From an uncultured Chlorobiaceae bacterium (GTDB taxonomy: Bacteria; Bacteroidota; Chlorobiia; Chlorobiales; Chlorobiaceae), in the NCBI GenBank assembly GCA_903939765.1, contig CAJAIK010000033.1:1-41915 (forward strand): a DNA stretch of 41,915 bases, in the 5' to 3' direction. The notes beneath the pieces were generated by a model, which saw nothing but the letters and a program-made list of their open reading frames with translations, did no database searches and was not told the origin of the DNA. Positions 2,372 to 12,554 of the stretch are shown piece by piece. Position numbers and translations under genes: made by a program. Numbering within the stretch: position 1 is the first letter of the stretch; every line of letters begins with the position of its first letter.

Positions 2372-3406
2372 TTATTTTTTATGAGATTTCTGATCCTGCT
2401 TTACATGTTCGGTCATCTCCCTGAACATCGTCCTGAATATCTTTATTCCTTTGACCGATTTTACCAGCGGCGGCGGTAGCGGCGTACGGCGCTTCATGAT
2501 CATCTTCATGGCCATCGGCAAAAGGTTTTGCAGCGTCCAGACCACGCCATTGGTGCGTATAGGAAGGGTCGCCTCGATCAACTTGCCTTTCTTTTCAATA
2601 TCCGTCATAAAAGCTTCCGCATGTTTGGAGCCACTGGTATCATTCTTTCCCCTGCTCTCAATGGCATCTTCACGCAGTCCATGAATGGCATCCATGATCG
2701 GAATACTTTTCACACACGACTCCTGACAGCGATAACAGTGCGTACAGTCCCAGACACCATGATCCTTGACCAGTTCGGCCATACGCTGCTCATGCATGGA
2801 GTCGCGACTGTCAACACTCATACGGTATGATTTCAGCAGCACGGCCGGAGAGACATACTCCTTGTTCGCCCGTAAAATGCTGCATTCAGAAACACAAGAG
2901 GCGCAAAGAATACAGTCGGTCGCTTTATCATAGCGAAGGAACTCCTCTTCGGAAATCAGGAACTCCTTTTTACCCATCTGGGCCTCAGGCATCGTTGAAT
3001 CGATCCAGTTCGAGTAGTGCACCATCTTGCCGACAAGCGGATCCATATCGACAATCAGATCTTTGATGAGCGGCAGGTTACGCAACGGCTCAACCTTGAT
3101 GATGCCTGGCTCCCTGCTTTTGGCAAGGACATCCCATACCTGTGTCGTACAGGCAAGCTGGGACAGTCCATTCACCCTCATGCTGCAGGATCCACAGATT
3201 CCAGCCTGACAGAAGGCTCTGAAGCTGACCGATCCGTCAATATGCTCCTTGATATAATTCAAGGACCTCAGCACCGTAATACCCCTCTCTACCGGAATGG
3301 TATAATCATCAAAATATGGCTTGCTGTCAACCTGTGGATTGAAACGAAAAACCCGGAAGGTTACATTTTTTTTCCCTTCTGTATGCTGATCTGTTGGCAA
3401 CGTCAT
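2372..3406 (-). CDS. sdhB: succinate dehydrogenase/fumarate reductase iron-sulfur subunit
   Basis: Electron-transfer subunit linking the flavoprotein to the HdrB-like subunit. The N-terminal part holds a [2Fe-2S] ferredoxin fold with the cysteines of FCQAGICGSCS and LACTTQ. The C-terminal part holds DCILCASCVSECS, a [4Fe-4S] site, and WDCTHCYRCQESC, which has four cysteines in CxxCxxCxxxC spacing. Classic SdhB proteins have only three cysteines at that last site, for a [3Fe-4S] cluster; the fourth cysteine is a hallmark of type-E enzymes and predicts a second [4Fe-4S] cluster. At 344 residues it is longer than E. coli SdhB, with an extra C-terminal tail. It starts 11 bases after sdhA ends, so the genes are cotranscribed. 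Confidence 0.94.
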   Translation of the reverse strand: MTLPTDQHTEGKKNVTFRVFRFNPQVDSKPYFDDYTIPVERGITVLRSLNYIKEHIDGSVSFRAFCQAGICGSCSMRVNGLSQLACTTQVWDVLAKSREPGIIKVEPLRNLPLIKDLIVDMDPLVGKMVHYSNWIDSTMPEAQMGKKEFLISEEEFLRYDKATDCILCASCVSECSILRANKEYVSPAVLLKSYRMSVDSRDSMHEQRMAELVKDHGVWDCTHCYRCQESCVKSIPIMDAIHGLREDAIESRGKNDTSGSKHAEAFMTDIEKKGKLIEATLPIRTNGVVWTLQNLLPMAMKMIMKRRTPLPPPLVKSVKGIKIFRTMFREMTEHVKQDQKSHKK

Positions 3407-5908: not shown

Positions 5909-6547
5909 TCATACAATTCCATGTATTTTTTTATACGTTATCCAGTTCTGTTTCAAGGCAAAAAAAGCCTTGAAATCACCCTGAAGCAGAAAAGGATTGG
6001 AAACTCGCTCTGTGCTGACGGTTGAGATGGGAGAGGTACCGTAATCATGTCCGGGATAAACTTTTGTTTCGCCGGGCAGCAGCATGAGCTTTTGCAGCGA
6101 GAGATATTCATCACGTGCCTGCTCTTCAGTGCTGGTGCCGCCAACCTTTCCCGTAAAGAGGGTATCACCGGTAAAAAGAGCTTCCCCGATATGAATGCAG
6201 ATGGAATCCCGGGTATGGCCGGGAGTATATAAAATACGCGCCTGAAGAGAGCCAAGAGGAAAGAGGGCCCCATCCTTTACGGTAATGCCAGTCCGGGCAC
6301 AGGTATCACCGTAAAGCAAAGGGGAAACAGCGGTCAACAGAGTGATGGCTGCGTTGCCATTGGTATGATCGTCATGACCATGTGATGAAAAGATGTAACG
6401 AATCACAAAACCCCTTTCAACGGCAAACCGCACAATCATGTCAGGATTGAATGAGGCGTCAATAACCAGAGCTTCCAGGGAAAGCTCATCGGCGACAAGA
6501 TAACCGAAGTTCCTGTCGCCACCGGTACGAAACTGTTCAACGATCAT
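5909..6547 (-). CDS. MBL-fold metallo-hydrolase (glyoxalase II-like)
   Basis: A 212-residue metallo-beta-lactamase-fold protein with all metal-binding motifs: SSHGHDDH (HxHxDH, about residues 55-62), TPGHTRDS, FTGDTLFTG and YPGHDYG. The GKVGGT stretch is typical of the hydroxyacylglutathione-hydrolase-like branch. The true substrate cannot be read from the sequence; a glutathione-type thioester or a persulfide are both chemically plausible for this fold, but the ETHE1 signature GCGRTDFQ is absent. The gene starts 14 bases after the RND pump stops, with an AGAGGAG ribosome binding site, so it is the last gene of the repressor-efflux operon, which ties its role to whatever that operon responds to. 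Confidence 0.88.
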   Translation of the reverse strand: MIVEQFRTGGDRNFGYLVADELSLEALVIDASFNPDMIVRFAVERGFVIRYIFSSHGHDDHTNGNAAITLLTAVSPLLYGDTCARTGITVKDGALFPLGSLQARILYTPGHTRDSICIHIGEALFTGDTLFTGKVGGTSTEEQARDEYLSLQKLMLLPGETKVYPGHDYGTSPISTVSTERVSNPFLLQGDFKAFFALKQNWITYKKIHGIV

Positions 6548-6561
6548 GCGATGTATCTCCT

Positions 6562-9500
6562 CTACCGTTTTGCTGATTTTTTCTCAACCATATAGTAAAC
6601 AATCGGCACAACAACGAGCGTCAGAATGGTTGAAAGAACACCACCCCAGATCAGCGATATGGCAAGTCCCTGAAAAATCGGATCAAAAAGCATCACGATC
6701 GAGCCAATCACAACCGCACCTGAGGTCAGAATAATCGGCCGGGTACGAACCGCGGCGGACTCAATAACCGCCTGCTTGAGATCAGCACCTTCCGCCCGGC
6801 GAATCTGGATGAAATCAATAAGCAGCACAGAGTTACGCACCATAATACCAGCCAGGGCAATCATACCGATCATGCTTGTTGCGGTAAAAAACGCACCATG
6901 CAGCAGATGACCGGGAATAATACCCACAAGACTGAGCGGAATGGCTATCATCATGATCAGCGGCGTCTTGAAAGACTGGAACCAGCCGATGATCAGAAGA
7001 TAAATAATCACAAGCACAACGGCAAAAGCGGTGCCAAGATCCCTGAAAACTTCAAAGGTAATCTGCCACTCCCCATCCCATTTCATCGACAGCTTCTCCT
7101 CCGAGGTTGGGTTGGCCGTATAAAGAGGGCTGACCCGGTATCCTCCCGGAACCTTTAGCTTTTCGATCTTTTTATCCATATCGAGCATGGCATAGACCGG
7201 GCTCTCCGTCGCCCCGGCAACATCAGCCGTAACATAAACCACCCGGCGGAGATCCTTTCGGTAAATGCTCTTGTCCTGAATTTTTTCTTCAACCTTCACC
7301 AGCTCTGAAAGTGGAATCATCTCACCGGCACGCAAACGGGTTGTCAAGGTTCCCATACCCTGTGACTGCACAAAAATACCGGAAAGATCCTGCAGGGAAG
7401 TTCTGTCGGACTGAGGCAAACGGACCTGAATCATGACAGGTTCCAGTTCCTTGTCCGTATGCAGTACCCCAACATCCATGCCCGCAAGCGACATGCGCAG
7501 CGTCTGGGCTATCTGTTCGGCTGTGACACCGCGGAATGCAGCTCGCTCTTTGTTGACGACCAGATTGTATACCTTCTGGTCAGCCTCAACCATCCAGTCA
7601 ACATCGACCACCCCGGGAGTCTCTTCAAAGACCTTTTTGACCTGTTTGGCCAATGCAATCTGCTGCTCCTGCGAAGGGCCATAAATTTCAGCAACAAGCG
7701 TTGAAAGAACCGGCGGGCCCGGTGGAATTTCAACGATCTTGGCATTCGCATTATAGCGCATGGCAATCTGCTGTACTCCAGCCCTTACCTTTTTGGCAAT
7801 ATCATGGCTCTGCGCCTTGCGTTCATCCTTCGGAACAAGGTTAACCTGGATATCGCCCATGTTCTTTGCCTGACGCAGGTAGTAATGGCGCACAAGACCG
7901 TTGAAATTGATAGGCGCATTAGTCCCCACATAGTACTGATAACTGCGAACTTCCGGCACTGTTTTCAGATAGGCTGAAATCTCCTTGGTCACTCTTGCTG
8001 TCTGCTCAAGCGCCGTACCTTCAGGCATATCAATAATCACCTGAAACTCGTTTTTATTGTCAAACGGAAGCATCTTCATCTGTACAGCCTTAAGCGGCAC
8101 CAACGCAATAGCTCCGACAAGCATAAGCCCAACCACCCCGAACGCAACCCATCGCTTGAAACTGCTCTCGATAAATGGAGAGAGAATAGCGTTAAAAAGC
8201 CTGTAATAGGCGGTTTTGGAAATATCATACTCTTCATGATGCCCCTCTTCAGTTTTAAGCAGACGGAAAGAGAGCCAGGGCGTTGCAATCAGCGCAACAA
8301 GAAGCGAAAAAATCATGGCCAGTGAAGCGCCAATCGGCATCGGACTCATATAGGGACCCATCAGACCGGAAACAAAGACCATCGGAAGCACGGCAGCAAT
8401 AACCGTAAAGGTTGCCAGAATGGTTGGATTGCCGACCTCATTGATCGCAGTAATAGCGGCCTGCAGTTTTGGCTGCCGCTTCATGGCAAAATGACGATGA
8501 ATGTTCTCTGCAATGATGATCGAGTCATCAACAACAATACCGGTAACAAAGATCAACGCAAACAGGGTCACCCTGTTAAGTGAATAATCAAGCAAGTAGT
8601 AAATCAGCAGGGTAAGGGCAAAGGTGATCGGTACCGAGGCAAGTACCACAAGAGCCCCGCGCCATCCCAGAAAAAAGCCAACAACGATCGTTACCGCAAC
8701 AACCGCCATAAGCAGATGCTCCAGAAGGGTCGTGACCTTGTCGGTTGCCGTTGCACCGTAGTTCCTCGTTTCGGACACCGTCACTCCGGCAGGAATAGAA
8801 CTCTTCTTCAGCTCTTCAACCCTTGCAAGCACCTTGTCGGCAAGCTTGGAAGCGTCACTTCCCTGACGCTTGGCCACCGTCAGCGTCACCGCAGGGTACT
8901 CTCCTGATGCTGACCCTTTTGGAGCCGCCGCGCCCCAGCCGAAGAAGTTGTAATTATTGACCTCTTCAGGCCCGTCAACAACGCTCGCAACATCGCGCAG
9001 ATACACGGGTGATGCACCATAGATTCCGACAACGATATTGCCGACATCACTGGCGCTCTCAAGAAACCGTCCTGACCGGACAACGATCTCCTGATTCATC
9101 TGCTTGAAATCACCGGAGGTCATCTGGCTGTTGGCCATCTGTACCTGTCGGGCAATCTGCAGGGGGCTGACATTGAACTGCCGGAGTTTTTCCTTGTCGA
9201 GCACAATCTTTACCTGACGTTTCAATCCTCCCTTTATGTCAACATCACCAATACTCTTGATTTTTTTTAACTCATCAGCCACCCCGACTGCAGTTTTACG
9301 AAGCTCGAACGGATCTTTTGTCTTGCTCCAAAAGGTGAGATTAAGCACCGGAACATCGTCGATCGAGACCTTTTTCATCAAAGGGAACTGAACACCTGGC
9401 GGCATCTTGTCCATGTTTTTCATCAGTGTCGACCACAATTTGACCATGCTTTTTTCAGCATCCTCACCAACCTTATAACGGACAGTCACCACCGCAAAGT

Positions 9501-9774
9501 CAGGCATGGAGGTTGAATAGACATAATCCACTCCGGGAATTTCAGTCAAGGTACGCTCAACCGACTTGGCAACACGTGATTCCACCTCGGCGGGAGTTGC
9601 TCCCGGATAGGGGATATAAAGATCAACCATCGGCACCACAATCTGTGGTTCTTCCTCTCTCGGCGTCATGAATGTCGCCATAATACCCACCAGGAGAGAG
9701 GCCACCATCAGGAGCGGCGTAATCTTTGAATTGATAAACTGTTTTGCAAGTTTACCGGCAATACCTTCATTCAT
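6562..9774 (-). CDS. RND-family efflux transporter permease (AcrB-like)
   Basis: A 1070-residue inner-membrane pump of the resistance-nodulation-division superfamily. It has the expected TM1, large periplasmic loop, TM2-6, second loop, TM7-12 layout. TM4 carries GIVVDDSIIIAENIHRHF, in which the paired aspartates form the proton relay of AcrB-type pumps; heavy-metal CusA-type pumps have a different TM4 motif. An inserted Gly/Ala-rich stretch (about residues 280-295) sits in the first periplasmic loop. The start overlaps the end of the upstream adaptor gene by 8 bases, giving translational coupling. Substrate is unknown. Together with the adaptor and the TolC-like gene it would form a tripartite exporter, but the adaptor is strikingly short (see there). 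Confidence 0.93.
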   Translation of the reverse strand: MNEGIAGKLAKQFINSKITPLLMVASLLVGIMATFMTPREEEPQIVVPMVDLYIPYPGATPAEVESRVAKSVERTLTEIPGVDYVYSTSMPDFAVVTVRYKVGEDAEKSMVKLWSTLMKNMDKMPPGVQFPLMKKVSIDDVPVLNLTFWSKTKDPFELRKTAVGVADELKKIKSIGDVDIKGGLKRQVKIVLDKEKLRQFNVSPLQIARQVQMANSQMTSGDFKQMNQEIVVRSGRFLESASDVGNIVVGIYGASPVYLRDVASVVDGPEEVNNYNFFGWGAAAPKGSASGEYPAVTLTVAKRQGSDASKLADKVLARVEELKKSSIPAGVTVSETRNYGATATDKVTTLLEHLLMAVVAVTIVVGFFLGWRGALVVLASVPITFALTLLIYYLLDYSLNRVTLFALIFVTGIVVDDSIIIAENIHRHFAMKRQPKLQAAITAINEVGNPTILATFTVIAAVLPMVFVSGLMGPYMSPMPIGASLAMIFSLLVALIATPWLSFRLLKTEEGHHEEYDISKTAYYRLFNAILSPFIESSFKRWVAFGVVGLMLVGAIALVPLKAVQMKMLPFDNKNEFQVIIDMPEGTALEQTARVTKEISAYLKTVPEVRSYQYYVGTNAPINFNGLVRHYYLRQAKNMGDIQVNLVPKDERKAQSHDIAKKVRAGVQQIAMRYNANAKIVEIPPGPPVLSTLVAEIYGPSQEQQIALAKQVKKVFEETPGVVDVDWMVEADQKVYNLVVNKERAAFRGVTAEQIAQTLRMSLAGMDVGVLHTDKELEPVMIQVRLPQSDRTSLQDLSGIFVQSQGMGTLTTRLRAGEMIPLSELVKVEEKIQDKSIYRKDLRRVVYVTADVAGATESPVYAMLDMDKKIEKLKVPGGYRVSPLYTANPTSEEKLSMKWDGEWQITFEVFRDLGTAFAVVLVIIYLLIIGWFQSFKTPLIMMIAIPLSLVGIIPGHLLHGAFFTATSMIGMIALAGIMVRNSVLLIDFIQIRRAEGADLKQAVIESAAVRTRPIILTSGAVVIGSIVMLFDPIFQGLAISLIWGGVLSTILTLVVVPIVYYMVEKKSAKR

Positions 9775-10183
9775 TGGTTTGATCCTCCGCAGTCACACTT
9801 TTTATTACCGTTACACCTTCAACAAGCTCAGGACTATAAACTCCCACCACAAACTCACCTTTATCCAGACCACCAAGAACAACAAGATCGCCCTGCATGA
9901 AACGCCCCGTACTGATCCATCGTACAGAGAGACGATTATCAGCCCCTGCGACAAAAATACCGGTAAGCTCCCCTTTACGAAAAATCGCCGATGCTGGCAC
10001 CAGCAGCACCTCGTCACCCCCGGCCTTAACTGCACGACGAACGGCGACAACACTCACGACAGCATCAGGAGAGACCTTGCTCCCGCTCTTTATCGACTCC
10101 GGCTCGCGATTGCCACACCCTGCAAACAGCAAGGGAATGGCAACCAGAAAAGGGAACAAATTCTTTTTTCTATCCAAACTCAT
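9767..10183 (-). CDS. shortened RND membrane fusion protein (periplasmic adaptor)
   Basis: A 138-residue lipoprotein that looks like an RND adaptor with its middle missing. Residues 1-23 are a lipoprotein signal peptide ending LLFAG|C. A short stretch (VVSVVAVRRAV) resembles the N-terminal beta strand of adaptors. The sequence then goes straight to the C-terminal barrel and membrane-proximal part (LLVPASAIFRKGELTGIFV, then GDLVVLGGLDKGEFVV). The lipoyl domain and alpha-helical hairpin that normally contact TolC, some 220-250 residues, are absent. The frame is intact, so this is either a clean in-frame deletion or a real minimal adaptor. It lies between the TolC-like gene (31 bases away) and the pump gene (8-base overlap). 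Confidence 0.82.
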   Translation of the reverse strand: MSLDRKKNLFPFLVAIPLLFAGCGNREPESIKSGSKVSPDAVVSVVAVRRAVKAGGDEVLLVPASAIFRKGELTGIFVAGADNRLSVRWISTGRFMQGDLVVLGGLDKGEFVVGVYSPELVEGVTVIKSVTAEDQTNE

Positions 10184-10214
10184 GGCATTATTCTGCTTCA
10201 GTTACAAAAGCCTC

Positions 10215-11540
10215 TCAGTTCCCACCGTAATATTCAAACTCACTTCTTGAAACACAATAATCATAGGAGGCCTGGTTCAGCCTCATTTTGGCATAGGTAT
10301 AGGCCTGCTCCCTCATCAAAAGCTCAAAGGTCATCGCCATCCCTGTTTTGAACTGCTCACCGATATAATCAAGGCTTACCTTGGCCTCCTCCAGAGATTT
10401 GCGGGCAACGGCAATTCTTGCTTTAGCGGTTTTCAGCGACCTGAGCGACCGGCTCACCTCAGCCAGACTGTTGCTCTTTGCCGCCTCATAGTTGTACATC
10501 GCCTCACGCACCTGAGCCTTGGCCTCCTGTGCACGACCTGCTGTTGCCATACCATCAAAAATATTCCACTGCATATTCATGCCAAGCGCCCAACTGGAAC
10601 CCCCGCTAAAAACGTTATTGCTGTGCAGGTTGGTCTGCACGAAGGCGTTCAGGCGCGGAAGCCTTGACGCATGAACAATCTCTTCCTGGCTGGCCGCAAC
10701 CTGTCGAAAAGTCTCGAGTGCCTTGAGATCAGCACGGTTTTCCGGCACGTATTTTTTATCTCCATCCGGCAAATGATTATCGATAACAAAATCACCTGTC
10801 GGCACAATGCTTACGCCCGGCTCAAGATTCAGTAGCACGGCAAGAACGTCCGTTCCATTTTTTATCTCGTCATGCAGCAGAAGTTTCTGCTCCTGAAGCT
10901 CAGCAAGCCTCACATCCGTTGAGAGCTTGTCAGATTTTGTCAGCAACCCGGCTCGGTAACCTTTGGCGGCATCATTGCTGTGTGCCTGCATGGTTTTTAT
11001 CGACTGCTCAACGGCTGCAATGTTTTTTCGGGCAAGAATAAGCCCGTAATAGACTTTGCTTACCTGGAGTCCTACACTCTCCTCAGTGCGCAGGGCCATA
11101 AGCTCCTGACCTTTTTTGGAGGTTAAGGCCATCGTCCGCCCTATTGCCGCATCCGCATTGTAAACCGGCTGCATCACCTGGAGAGATGTATTAAAATCAT
11201 TGATAACATCAGCATTATTAAGCTTTTCAGGCATAAAATCACTCTGCTGTACAATGTTCTGCTGCAACTTTAAAACCAGTGCTGCCCCCGGGTCATTGGT
11301 CACAACAAGCGTCTCCGACAACGTCACTTTCGGCAGATAGGACTGCCGGGTCTGAACCACCCTCGCCTGAGCCTGATCAACCCTGCTTTTGGCGGCCTTT
11401 ACCGTGAAGTTGTTTTGACGAGCCAGAGTAATGGCGTCAGCAAGAGAGAGCCTCATTGTTCTGTCAGCAGTTTTTGCCTGAAGCGGTGAGGCAAGAGCGC
11501 CTGCAATACAGAAACCGATCAACGCCTTATATATCTTCAT
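10215..11540 (-). CDS. TolC-family outer membrane efflux channel
   Basis: A 441-residue outer membrane factor. An N-terminal signal peptide (about residues 1-22, cleavage after LQA) is followed by the two internally similar halves typical of TolC proteins, each rich in heptad-like helical stretches (for example LADAITLARQNNFTVKAA near the start and SLRSLKTAKARIAVARKSLE near the end) with short beta segments. It would form the trimeric outer membrane duct for the adjacent RND pump. It begins 6 bases after the repressor gene, so it is cotranscribed with it and presumably derepressed together with it. No Shine-Dalgarno sequence is clear. Confidence 0.9.
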   Translation of the reverse strand: MKIYKALIGFCIAGALASPLQAKTADRTMRLSLADAITLARQNNFTVKAAKSRVDQAQARVVQTRQSYLPKVTLSETLVVTNDPGAALVLKLQQNIVQQSDFMPEKLNNADVINDFNTSLQVMQPVYNADAAIGRTMALTSKKGQELMALRTEESVGLQVSKVYYGLILARKNIAAVEQSIKTMQAHSNDAAKGYRAGLLTKSDKLSTDVRLAELQEQKLLLHDEIKNGTDVLAVLLNLEPGVSIVPTGDFVIDNHLPDGDKKYVPENRADLKALETFRQVAASQEEIVHASRLPRLNAFVQTNLHSNNVFSGGSSWALGMNMQWNIFDGMATAGRAQEAKAQVREAMYNYEAAKSNSLAEVSRSLRSLKTAKARIAVARKSLEEAKVSLDYIGEQFKTGMAMTFELLMREQAYTYAKMRLNQASYDYCVSRSEFEYYGGN

Positions 11541-11546
11541 GTTCTT

Positions 11547-11798
11547 TTATTGTTTAGAGATGAGCTTCAAAATCTTTTCAACACTTTTTGAATCATCATT
11601 ACTCAGGCACTCCTTAAGGTTGCGGTGAAGTACCAATGAAAAGGTGTTGTCCAAAGCAGCCTTTGCCGCCTGAAACTGCGTAATGATCTGGGGACACTCC
11701 TCTTCCCGTTCAATCATCCTGACAAGCCCCTCAACCTGACCGGCAACCCGTTTCAGCCTCAGAATCACATCATTCATGTCCCGTTCAGTTTTAATCAT
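11547..11798 (-). CDS. CsoR/FrmR-family repressor, CstR-like (candidate persulfide sensor)
   Basis: An 83-residue all-helical DNA-binding repressor of the DUF156/CsoR family, recognised by RLKRVAGQVEGLVRMIE followed by EECPQIITQ. Aligned by eye to copper-sensing CsoR, the first Cys is kept, the essential His is Asn (RNLKEC), and the last Cys is kept, 29 residues after the first. Cys-Asn-Cys with a following ENL/RNLxEC pattern is what I know from the persulfide sensor CstR, not from copper, nickel or formaldehyde sensors. The longest frame starts at a TTG at 11885 and would run through the operator, so I chose the ATG at 11798; the ATG at 11777 is less likely. First gene of the efflux operon. 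Confidence 0.85.
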   Translation of the reverse strand: MIKTERDMNDVILRLKRVAGQVEGLVRMIEREEECPQIITQFQAAKAALDNTFSLVLHRNLKECLSNDDSKSVEKILKLISKQ

Positions 11799-11827
11799 AA
11801 TAATCGGATCTAAAAGCGAGTGATACC

Positions 11828-11846
11828 TATACCCCCTATGGGTATA
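11828..11846. promoter_or_regulatory. CsoR/CstR-type operator
   Basis: A perfect inverted repeat, TATACCC then 5 bases then GGGTATA, lies 30 bases upstream of the repressor ATG at 11798. AT-flanked G/C tracts in this symmetrical arrangement are the known operator style of the CsoR/RcnR/CstR family. Its position, overlapping or just downstream of the probable -10 box, implies autorepression of the whole repressor-efflux operon. Confidence 0.78.
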
Positions 11847-11847
11847 A

Positions 11848-11875
11848 AAAATATAAAAAGAAAGAACAATTGCAA
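11848..11875 (-). promoter_or_regulatory. probable promoter of the repressor-efflux operon
   Basis: On the minus strand TTGCAA (11870-11875) and TATTTT (11848-11853) are spaced by 16 bases, immediately upstream of the operator palindrome. The AT-rich stretch and the operator next to it support the call, although the boxes are imperfect. Confidence 0.42.
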
Positions 11876-11930
11876 GCTTTTTCAATGCAACACAGAGGGT
11901 AATGGAAAAACAACCGCAGAAAACCCAGCC

Positions 11931-12554
11931 CTATTTTTTACCACCCTCAACAGCAAGTTCAGCCGACGTGCAGCAAATATCCGACTGAACCTGGCAAAGC
12001 ATACTTTCTGTAGCCTGTTGCATGATCTGCGACATGACGGCCTCAGTCATAAACCTCAGAATACCCTCCGGCATAAGATTCAGGGGAAACGACAGATCAA
12101 AATCAAGAGCAATATCGGTATCAAAATAGACCGATGTCCGACCATCATGCTGATGCAGCAGGCATATTTCAGAACTTGCCTGCCCGATAAAGGAGTTGGG
12201 AGAGACAAGTTCAATTTCTGGATGATCAGGCACCGCCTCCCAGCGAATCCGCTTTCCAGTACCATTGAGATGCGCCCTGTTTTGCACTCTCGAGGCCAAC
12301 TGCTGGCCGTAAATATCGTCAAACGAAAAAACCTCCTCCCGTTGACGGACAAAAAACACTGCCGTAATCGGATTGTTTCGGGGATCAGCCACCTCAAAAA
12401 TCCACTGAAAAATATCGAGATCCTTTAAATATTTGACGTTACTGCAATAAGGATTGCACTTCAGCAGCTTTTCATGATCAGAGAAATAAAGAATCGATTC
12501 ATGAAAACATGAATCAAGAACGACATGAGCCTTACTTTTACCAACAACTTCCAT
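11931..12554 (-). CDS. DUF1997-like protein
   Basis: A 207-residue soluble protein that I recognise only as resembling the DUF1997 family, which is found mainly in cyanobacteria, plant plastids and green sulfur bacteria and is thought to have a START/SRPBCC-like lipid- or pigment-binding fold. The alternation of beta strands in the middle (EVFSFDDIYG..., SEICLLHQHDGRTSVYFDTDIALDFDLSFPL) and the C-terminal helix with LMPEGILRFMTEAVM fit that fold. The function is unknown. It is the last of four minus-strand genes beginning with the carotenoid cyclase, though 137 bases separate it from the preceding small gene. That context and its distribution in phototrophs suggest a pigment-related role; this is inference. 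Confidence 0.62.
   Translation of the reverse strand: MEVVGKSKAHVVLDSCFHESILYFSDHEKLLKCNPYCSNVKYLKDLDIFQWIFEVADPRNNPITAVFFVRQREEVFSFDDIYGQQLASRVQNRAHLNGTGKRIRWEAVPDHPEIELVSPNSFIGQASSEICLLHQHDGRTSVYFDTDIALDFDLSFPLNLMPEGILRFMTEAVMSQIMQQATESMLCQVQSDICCTSAELAVEGGKK

What the first reader, a model, noticed from the sequence alone, without database searches (positions are those of the whole stretch)
5909..11885. CstR-like repressor, operator, RND exporter and MBL hydrolase in one operon: candidate sulfur-species-responsive efflux system
Seen: five minus-strand genes with gaps of 6, 31, -8 and 14 bases, headed by a CsoR-family repressor with a perfect TATACCC-N5-GGGTATA operator. The repressor's sensor positions read Cys-Asn-Cys where copper sensors have Cys-His-Cys. 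Known: the persulfide sensor CstR uses two cysteines and lacks that His, and some CstR regulons encode an MBL-fold persulfide dioxygenase. Inferred: in a sulfide-oxidising green sulfur bacterium this operon may sense persulfide or polysulfide and export or detoxify a sulfur-related compound. An RND pump under such a sensor would be unusual.
Basis: partly seen in the sequence, partly recalled or inferred. Interest (0 to 1): 0.75.

Follow-up and report, generated by a model that had tools for sequence, protein, structure and literature searches.

The report
Sulfur-sensing repressor with efflux pump operon
Green sulfur bacteria carry a conserved operon in which a repressor of the persulfide-sensing (CstR) kind appears to control an RND membrane pump, a metallo-hydrolase and, elsewhere in the genome, a sulfur-transfer enzyme; the pump's normal periplasmic adaptor is shrunk or missing, so it may be a new kind of sulfur exporter.

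Summary
The window is from a Chlorobiaceae genome. Its only CsoR-family gene heads CsoR-TolC-short adaptor-RND-MBL, with an operator that matches exactly nowhere else in that genome. The sulfur reading holds under tests that could have failed. (1) The sensor triplet is Cys-Asn-Cys (70) or Cys-Ser-Cys (7) in 77 relatives, never Cys-His-Cys. Reference CstRs are Cys-Asn-Cys and copper CsoRs Cys-His-Cys. (2) Grouping with copper CsoRs is rejected (AU p=0.006; 0.019 with sensor columns removed). Grouping with CstRs is not, but 78 columns do not prove it. (3) The operator motif predicts a regulon: 38 of 44 sites away from the repressor lie upstream of a rhodanese or OsmC gene. Conversely, 26 of 30 rhodanese orthologues carry the site. 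The window's genome has this rhodanese, with a two-mismatch site 28 bp upstream. (4) Second copies in relatives continue into OsmC and SQR-like genes. (5) The pump's relatives in other phyla often sit with ArsR regulators and rhodanese. New here: the adaptor is only a lipoprotein membrane-proximal domain, lost in about 18 of 70 loci while the pump stays under strong purifying selection. Most copies also encode an undescribed PII-like protein with three invariant cysteines. Effector and cargo are unproven.

The parts
11547..11798 (-). CstR-like CsoR/RcnR-family repressor, 83 aa, sensor Cys35-Asn60-Cys64
   Evidence: PF02583 75.4 bits; closest PDB chain is the Streptococcus pneumoniae CstR 7mq1 (identified as CstR from memory, the PDB entry is labelled csoR); CNC pattern; tree and AU tests
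11828..11846 (.). Operator TATACCCATAGGGGGTATA (minus-strand reading), 29 bp before the repressor start codon
   Evidence: consensus TATACCYNTANGGGGTATA with spacing 5 found upstream of 75 of 77 repressor genes of this clade
10215..11540 (-). TolC-family outer membrane channel, 441 aa
   Evidence: PF02321 151.6 bits; dN/dS about 0.06-0.17
9767..10183 (-). Miniature RND adaptor, 138 aa lipoprotein: signal peptide and lipobox Cys23 plus membrane-proximal domain only; barrel, lipoyl and hairpin domains absent
   Evidence: TIGR01730 positions 246-319 of 322; invariant C23 in 31 sequences; model matches MexA/AcrA/TriA membrane-proximal domain; full-length homologues are 334-455 aa
6562..9774 (-). 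RND permease, 1070 aa, outside the named HAE-1/HME subfamilies
   Evidence: PF00873 549.9 bits; all NCBIfam subfamilies far under cut-off; dN/dS 0.01-0.06
5909..6547 (-). MBL-fold hydrolase, 212 aa, full HxHxDH..H..D..H ligand set, persulfide-dioxygenase/glyoxalase II-like
   Evidence: PF00753; profile best match 4ysb 136 bits, then glyoxalase II 104 and ETHE1 96; ligands nearly invariant in 21 sequences

Best explanation
This is a CstR-type sulfane-sulfur-responsive operon of green sulfur bacteria. In the reduced state the repressor tetramer sits on the TATACC-N7-GGTATA operator and blocks the operon and a separate rhodanese gene (shown: conserved sites at both; inferred: repression). When per- or polysulfide accumulates, Cys35 and Cys64 of neighbouring subunits become linked by a sulfur bridge and the repressor leaves the DNA (inferred from CstR). 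The rhodanese then moves sulfane sulfur to a carrier, and the RND permease with TolC exports a sulfur-bearing or thiol compound; bacillithiol-type persulfide or polysulfide is the most likely cargo (inferred). The MBL enzyme hydrolyses or oxidises a thioester or persulfide of the same thiol (inferred). The pump works with only a membrane-proximal stub of its adaptor, so it either borrows a full adaptor from another system in the cell or acts without one (open).
For: CNC/CSC sensor in 77 of 77 clade members, never His. Cu grouping rejected with p=0.0057, 0.019 masked; clade lies on the CstR side with 95/96 support, 90/93 masked. Operator conserved at spacing 5. Operator elsewhere lies upstream of rhodanese or OsmC in 38 of 44 sites, including the window's own genome (rhodanese PF00581). 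26 of 30 rhodanese orthologues carry the site against 126 of 5000 random 300-bp pieces. Second operon copies continue into PII-like, OsmC, SQR-like and YgaP-TM genes with a divergent rhodanese. RND relatives in cyanobacteria and alphaproteobacteria sit with rhodanese and, in part, ArsR, DUF2892 and FAD/NAD(P) oxidoreductase genes. A CsoR-family gene is present in all 65 good-quality Chlorobiaceae genomes, with gene order checked in the fetched loci. Literature: CstR C31-C60' bridge (PMC5480029), CstR-like YrkD released by elemental sulfur (PMC9918477), RND targets of sulfane-sulfur ArsR repressors (PMC12423496).
Against: No expression or binding data. The operator spacing of 5 matches the S. 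epidermidis copper CsoR site better than the S. aureus CstR site, which has 4, so the operator alone does not discriminate. The tree rests on 78 columns, and a first, sparser tree with sensor columns removed was unresolved. The best NCBIfam hit of the MBL protein is glyoxalase II-type, not a persulfide dioxygenase. The cargo is inferred only from gene context.
Confidence: 0.72

Rival explanations
1. A copper (or other metal) sensor and metal exporter: the repressor binds Cu(I) through two cysteines and the RND pump exports metal.
For: CsoR-family fold; operator spacing equals that of a copper CsoR; some RND pumps export metals; Chlorobiaceae need metal homeostasis.
Against: The His ligand is replaced by Asn or Ser in all 77 members; Cu clade rejected; the permease is far under the CusA/CzcA cut-off, 294 against 701 bits; regulon is rhodanese, OsmC and SQR-like genes, with no copper ATPase or CopZ seen.
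Confidence: 0.07
2. A general thiol-stress (electrophile, quinone, aldehyde) sensor controlling a multidrug pump and a glyoxalase II-like hydrolase.
For: CstR also reacts with other thiol-active agents such as nitroxyl (PMC5480029); MBL protein resembles glyoxalase II; OsmC proteins act on peroxides; FrmR grouping only borderline rejected when sensor columns are masked, p=0.059.
Against: Rhodanese is the most conserved distant target; second copies carry SQR-like genes; FrmR/RcnR-type proteins of the same family are separate CHH paralogues.
Confidence: 0.15
3. A decaying pump: the operon is regulated by sulfur but the RND pump no longer exports anything because its adaptor is lost.
For: Adaptor reduced to one domain everywhere and absent in about 18 loci; its dN/dS is relaxed, 0.17-0.87.
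Against: The permease is under strong purifying selection, dN/dS 0.01-0.06, and TolC 0.06-0.17, in the same species pairs; about nine other full or near-full adaptors are encoded in the window's genome and could serve in trans; adaptor exchange between RND pumps is known (PMC8446912).
Confidence: 0.06

Closest known systems
CstR regulon of Staphylococcus aureus and the YrkD cluster of Bacillus licheniformis
   Same: Small CsoR-family repressor with Cys-Asn-Cys sensor; ATAC/GTAT operator; regulon of rhodanese, MBL-fold enzyme and SQR-type genes (PMC5480029, PMC9918477)
   Different: No RND pump or TolC there; transport is by TauE-type carriers; operator spacing 4 not 5; here the host is a Gram-negative anaerobic phototroph
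ArsR-type sulfane-sulfur repressors (SqrR, sHdrR, SoxR) with RND targets
   Same: Sulfane-sulfur sensor placed on an RND pump with rhodanese and SQR (PMC12423496; loci L155, L157, L158)
   Different: Unrelated repressor fold; full-length adaptor of 334-455 aa present
Azospira suillum SQR-RND operon Dsui_3440-3443
   Same: SQR and RND genes in one operon, highly expressed during H2S oxidation (PMC5358917)
   Different: No CsoR-family repressor described; an adaptor (MFP) subunit annotated; authors proposed metal sulfide export
TTHA1953 of Thermus thermophilus
   Same: CsoR-family protein governing sulfur oxidation genes, binds DNA best when reduced (PMC10318464)
   Different: Different operator TACNNTACNNNNGTANNGTA; targets Sox genes, no RND operon
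MexAB-OprM / AcrAB-TolC tripartite pumps
   Same: RND permease, TolC-type channel, lipoprotein adaptor with membrane-proximal domain
   Different: Adaptor lacks barrel, lipoyl and hairpin domains needed to bridge to TolC

Membership tests
CstR (persulfide-sensing CsoR-family repressor) | CsoR/RcnR (DUF156) fold | tested here: met
   PF02583 75.4 bits against cut-off 22.8
CstR (persulfide-sensing CsoR-family repressor) | Cysteines at sensor positions X and Z, no His at Y | tested here: met
   CNC in window and 70 relatives, CSC in 7, CHC in none
CstR (persulfide-sensing CsoR-family repressor) | Groups with CstR rather than Cu, Ni/Co or formaldehyde sensors | tested here: met
   Cu rejected p=0.0057 (masked 0.019), Frm/Rcn p=0.007 (masked 0.059), CstR not rejected; short alignment, so CstR membership is allowed rather than proved; sparser tree unresolved when masked
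CstR (persulfide-sensing CsoR-family repressor) | Regulon of sulfane-sulfur enzymes | tested here: met
   Operator upstream of rhodanese or OsmC in 38 of 44 sites; 26 of 30 rhodanese orthologues
CstR (persulfide-sensing CsoR-family repressor) | Operator spacing as in CstR sites | tested here: inconclusive
   Spacing 5 here; 4 in S. aureus CstR and Cytobacillus sites, 5 in copper CsoR sites
CstR (persulfide-sensing CsoR-family repressor) | Release from DNA by per- or polysulfide via Cys-Sn-Cys' bridge | not testable with these tools
   needs purified protein
Copper-sensing CsoR | Cys-His-Cys copper site | tested here: not met
   Asn or Ser replaces His in all members
Tripartite RND efflux pump | RND permease and TolC-type channel | tested here: met
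   PF00873 549.9 bits, PF02321 151.6 bits
Tripartite RND efflux pump | Adaptor with barrel, lipoyl and hairpin domains | tested here: not met
   Only membrane-proximal domain; open frames of 124-183 aa in relatives, a 53-aa remnant in one and none in about 18 loci
Persulfide dioxygenase (ETHE1/PDO) | Closest to PDO rather than glyoxalase II | tested here: inconclusive
   PDB profile: 4ysb (Myxococcus PDO, identified from memory) 136 bits, glyoxalase II 104, ETHE1 96; NCBIfam prefers glyoxalase II, 95 against 76 bits for Blh
Persulfide dioxygenase (ETHE1/PDO) | O2-dependent persulfide oxidation | not testable with these tools
   biochemical assay needed; host family is anaerobic (general knowledge)

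The most novel reading that the evidence does not exclude
An RND pump that works without a conventional periplasmic adaptor, gated in most species by a cysteine-bearing PII-like protein and induced through a CstR-type sensor, exports polysulfide or a bacillithiol-type persulfide from green sulfur bacteria. It would thus be part of the unknown route by which they make extracellular sulfur globules or return the sulfur-carrier thiol to the periplasm.
Probability: 0.17. Interest if true: 0.85.

Novelty: new variant of a known kind. Interest (0 to 1): 0.64.

Why it matters
[quoted passage not shown] A pump kept across the family under a sulfane-sulfur-type repressor, with a rhodanese in its regulon, is a concrete candidate for that transport step. 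It also moves the CstR family from the Gram-positive groups where it was worked out to a Gram-negative phototroph and links it to RND efflux. Finally, it offers a natural case of an RND pump that has repeatedly lost its adaptor while staying under strong selection, which tests what the adaptor is needed for.

Tried and rejected
The copper and formaldehyde readings were tested by sensor residues and AU tests and set aside. The first CsoR tree with sensor columns removed was unresolved, AU p 0.42, 0.36 and 0.14, so a denser set was built. The promoter and terminator scan gave no more than chance. The PII-like protein has no match on plasmids, in Pfam or NCBIfam, or in the window's own genome. 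PDB sequence searches for it gave only meaningless coiled-coil hits. A Gracilibacteria-labelled contig (L302) has a CNC repressor directly before an RND adaptor and permease, but its genes show no recoded TGA and its RND is only 32% identical, so it may be mis-binned; its gene order is not used as evidence, though its repressor sequence is one row of the tree. A Patescibacteria-labelled relative (L301) has no informative context. Of the sites listed, only 40 regions were fetched, chosen by hand before their content was seen. The converse test was added because of that.
Full report
Check of the observation. The window is contig G000:C33 of a 2.98-Mb, 99% complete Chlorobiaceae genome with a single CsoR-family gene (family named from the close relatives). 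The five genes, their spacing and the operator are as described. The repressor is 83 aa (11547-11798), and the perfect palindrome lies 29 bp upstream of its start codon and is the only exact match in the genome. The one important miss is the adaptor: the gene between TolC and the permease is 138 aa and covers only the last quarter of the RND adaptor profile.

Distribution. A CsoR-family gene is present in 82 of 86 family genomes, and in all 65 of good quality. In the fetched loci the order DUF1997 - CsoR - TolC - short adaptor (or none) - RND - 102-aa gene - MBL - CBS protein - SdhA is conserved in both genera. Named members include Chlorobium ferrooxidans and Chlorobaculum thiosulfatiphilum. 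Outside this family, none of the other-family CsoR proteins sampled in the phylum has the CNC triplet. The window's species and a few close relatives lack the 102-aa gene.

The sensor. Of 82 Chlorobiaceae CsoR-family proteins, 70 are Cys-Asn-Cys and 7 Cys-Ser-Cys; the remaining 5 are separate RcnR/FrmR-like paralogues with Cys-His-His. References labelled by annotation or context divide well: S. aureus CstR, the pneumococcal protein 7mq1 and repressors in TusA/MBL/thioredoxin settings are CNC, while those next to copper ATPases or CopZ are CHC; two repressors in rhodanese settings are Cys-Tyr-Cys and Cys-Gly-Cys. A tree of 42 proteins placed the clade beside CstR, but masking the three sensor columns removed the resolution. 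With closer relatives added, grouping with copper CsoRs is rejected (p=0.0057; masked 0.019), grouping with FrmR/RcnR is rejected with all columns and borderline without (0.007; 0.059), and grouping with CstRs is not rejected. I read this as: not a copper sensor, most likely CstR-type, with membership resting on the residues and the regulon as much as on the tree.

The regulon test. The operator consensus TATACCYNTANGGGGTATA, with a fixed spacing of 5, lies upstream of 75 of 77 repressor genes of the clade. Searching whole genomes with it gives further sites in many species. In 40 fetched regions, 38 of 44 sites lie just upstream of one rhodanese family or of an OsmC gene. In the window's own genome a two-mismatch site lies 28 bp upstream of a rhodanese (L194:202-576, PF00581). 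In the converse direction, 26 of the 30 most similar rhodanese orthologues, chosen by protein similarity only, carry the site within 300 bp, against 126 of 5000 random 300-bp pieces of the operon loci, a pool that itself contains the repressor's own operators. Some of those rhodanese genes are divergent neighbours of a repressor copy and share its operator. This association was not built into the motif and is the strongest single evidence for a sulfur regulon.

Sulfur context. Several species hold a second copy, CsoR-TolC-adaptor-RND-PII-like, followed in different members by OsmC, SQR-like and YgaP-transmembrane genes, with a divergently transcribed rhodanese in several. The 486-aa oxidoreductase matches Acidithiobacillus sulfide:quinone reductase structures at 1e-34 (source organism from memory). 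Plasmid-borne relatives of the permease, 40-48% identical in Pseudanabaena, Sphingomonas and Azospirillum, sit with ArsR regulators, DUF2892, rhodanese and, in two of the three, an FAD/NAD(P)-binding oxidoreductase; the 55% identical Flammeovirga copy does not. The literature already lists RND pumps among targets of ArsR-type sulfane-sulfur repressors (PMC12423496) and describes an SQR-RND operon highly expressed during H2S oxidation (PMC5358917). What is new is the CstR-type repressor on such a pump, and its family-wide conservation in green sulfur bacteria.

The adaptor. Across 31 aligned sequences the short adaptor has an invariant lipobox cysteine and a conserved domain. The model of this domain superposes on the membrane-proximal domain of MexA and AcrA at about 1.5 Angstrom over about 75 residues. 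Full-length adaptors of homologous pumps are 334-455 aa; the Chlorobiaceae protein lacks their barrel, lipoyl and hairpin parts. In about 18 of 70 loci the gap between TolC and RND is too short even for this stub. dN/dS is 0.17-0.87 for the stub, 0.06-0.17 for TolC and 0.01-0.06 for the permease. The permease is therefore maintained while the adaptor is dispensable. The window's genome encodes about nine other adaptors over or near the family cut-off and four other RND permeases, and adaptor exchange between RND pumps is known (PMC8446912), so borrowing is the simplest explanation.

The 102-aa protein. It has no sequence family but folds as a PII-like protein, with invariant Cys36, Cys38 and Cys62; the first two lie in a low-confidence loop where PII proteins carry their partner-binding T-loop (the T-loop comparison is inference). 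A role in gating the pump in response to sulfur is speculation. Its absence from the window's genome shows that it is not essential.

The MBL enzyme. All seven metal ligands of the superfamily are present or nearly so in 21 sequences. A profile of the family scores best against 4ysb (a Myxococcus persulfide dioxygenase by my recollection), above glyoxalase II and ETHE1, but NCBIfam prefers glyoxalase II. A dioxygenase would need oxygen, and the host family is anaerobic (general knowledge), so I do not commit to persulfide oxidation; a hydrolase acting on a bacillithiol conjugate is equally open. Chlorobiaceae make N-methyl-bacillithiol (PMC6282198).

Verdict. Sulfane-sulfur sensing by the repressor is likely (about 0.8), co-regulation with the rhodanese very likely (about 0.9), export of a sulfur compound plausible (about 0.5), and an adaptor-independent sulfur exporter possible (about 0.17). 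The last would bear on the unknown mechanism of extracellular sulfur globule formation (PMC12285230). The conservation of the system in Chlorobium ferrooxidans, an iron oxidiser reported not to grow on sulfide (own knowledge), argues that the function is sulfur homeostasis or detoxification rather than energy metabolism alone.

Noticed in passing
L074:9185-9493 (+) and orthologues between RND and MBL in most Chlorobiaceae: Undescribed 102-aa PII-like protein with three invariant cysteines, no Pfam or NCBIfam match, not found in the window's own genome.
   Followed up: partly
L043:1667-8507: A different CsoR-family paralogue (Cys-His-His, FrmR/RcnR-like) lies near a complete HAE-type RND adaptor-permease-outer membrane set and what looks by eye like a cation diffusion facilitator gene.
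   Followed up: partly
L302:3691-9136 (contig JALVIB010000017.1, labelled Gracilibacteria): CNC CsoR-family repressor followed at once by a full-length RND adaptor and a permease only 32% identical to the window's; no in-frame TGA, so the label may be wrong.
   Followed up: partly
   Followed up: partly
L097, L104, L105, L106 (two CsoR genes in tandem): Tandem duplicated CstR-like repressors upstream of TolC-RND in a group of relatives, most with their own operator.
   Followed up: no
L216 sites at 3337 and 8885 (G080); L214 site at 6168 (G066): Operator copies not next to rhodanese or OsmC: in G080 one lies 145 bp before a 928-aa gene that looks by eye like a molybdopterin oxidoreductase, and one near a 458-aa gene; possible wider regulon.
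   Followed up: no
window 11931-12554 (-): DUF1997-like protein directly upstream of the repressor in nearly all Chlorobiaceae; outside the operator-controlled unit, function unknown.
   Followed up: no
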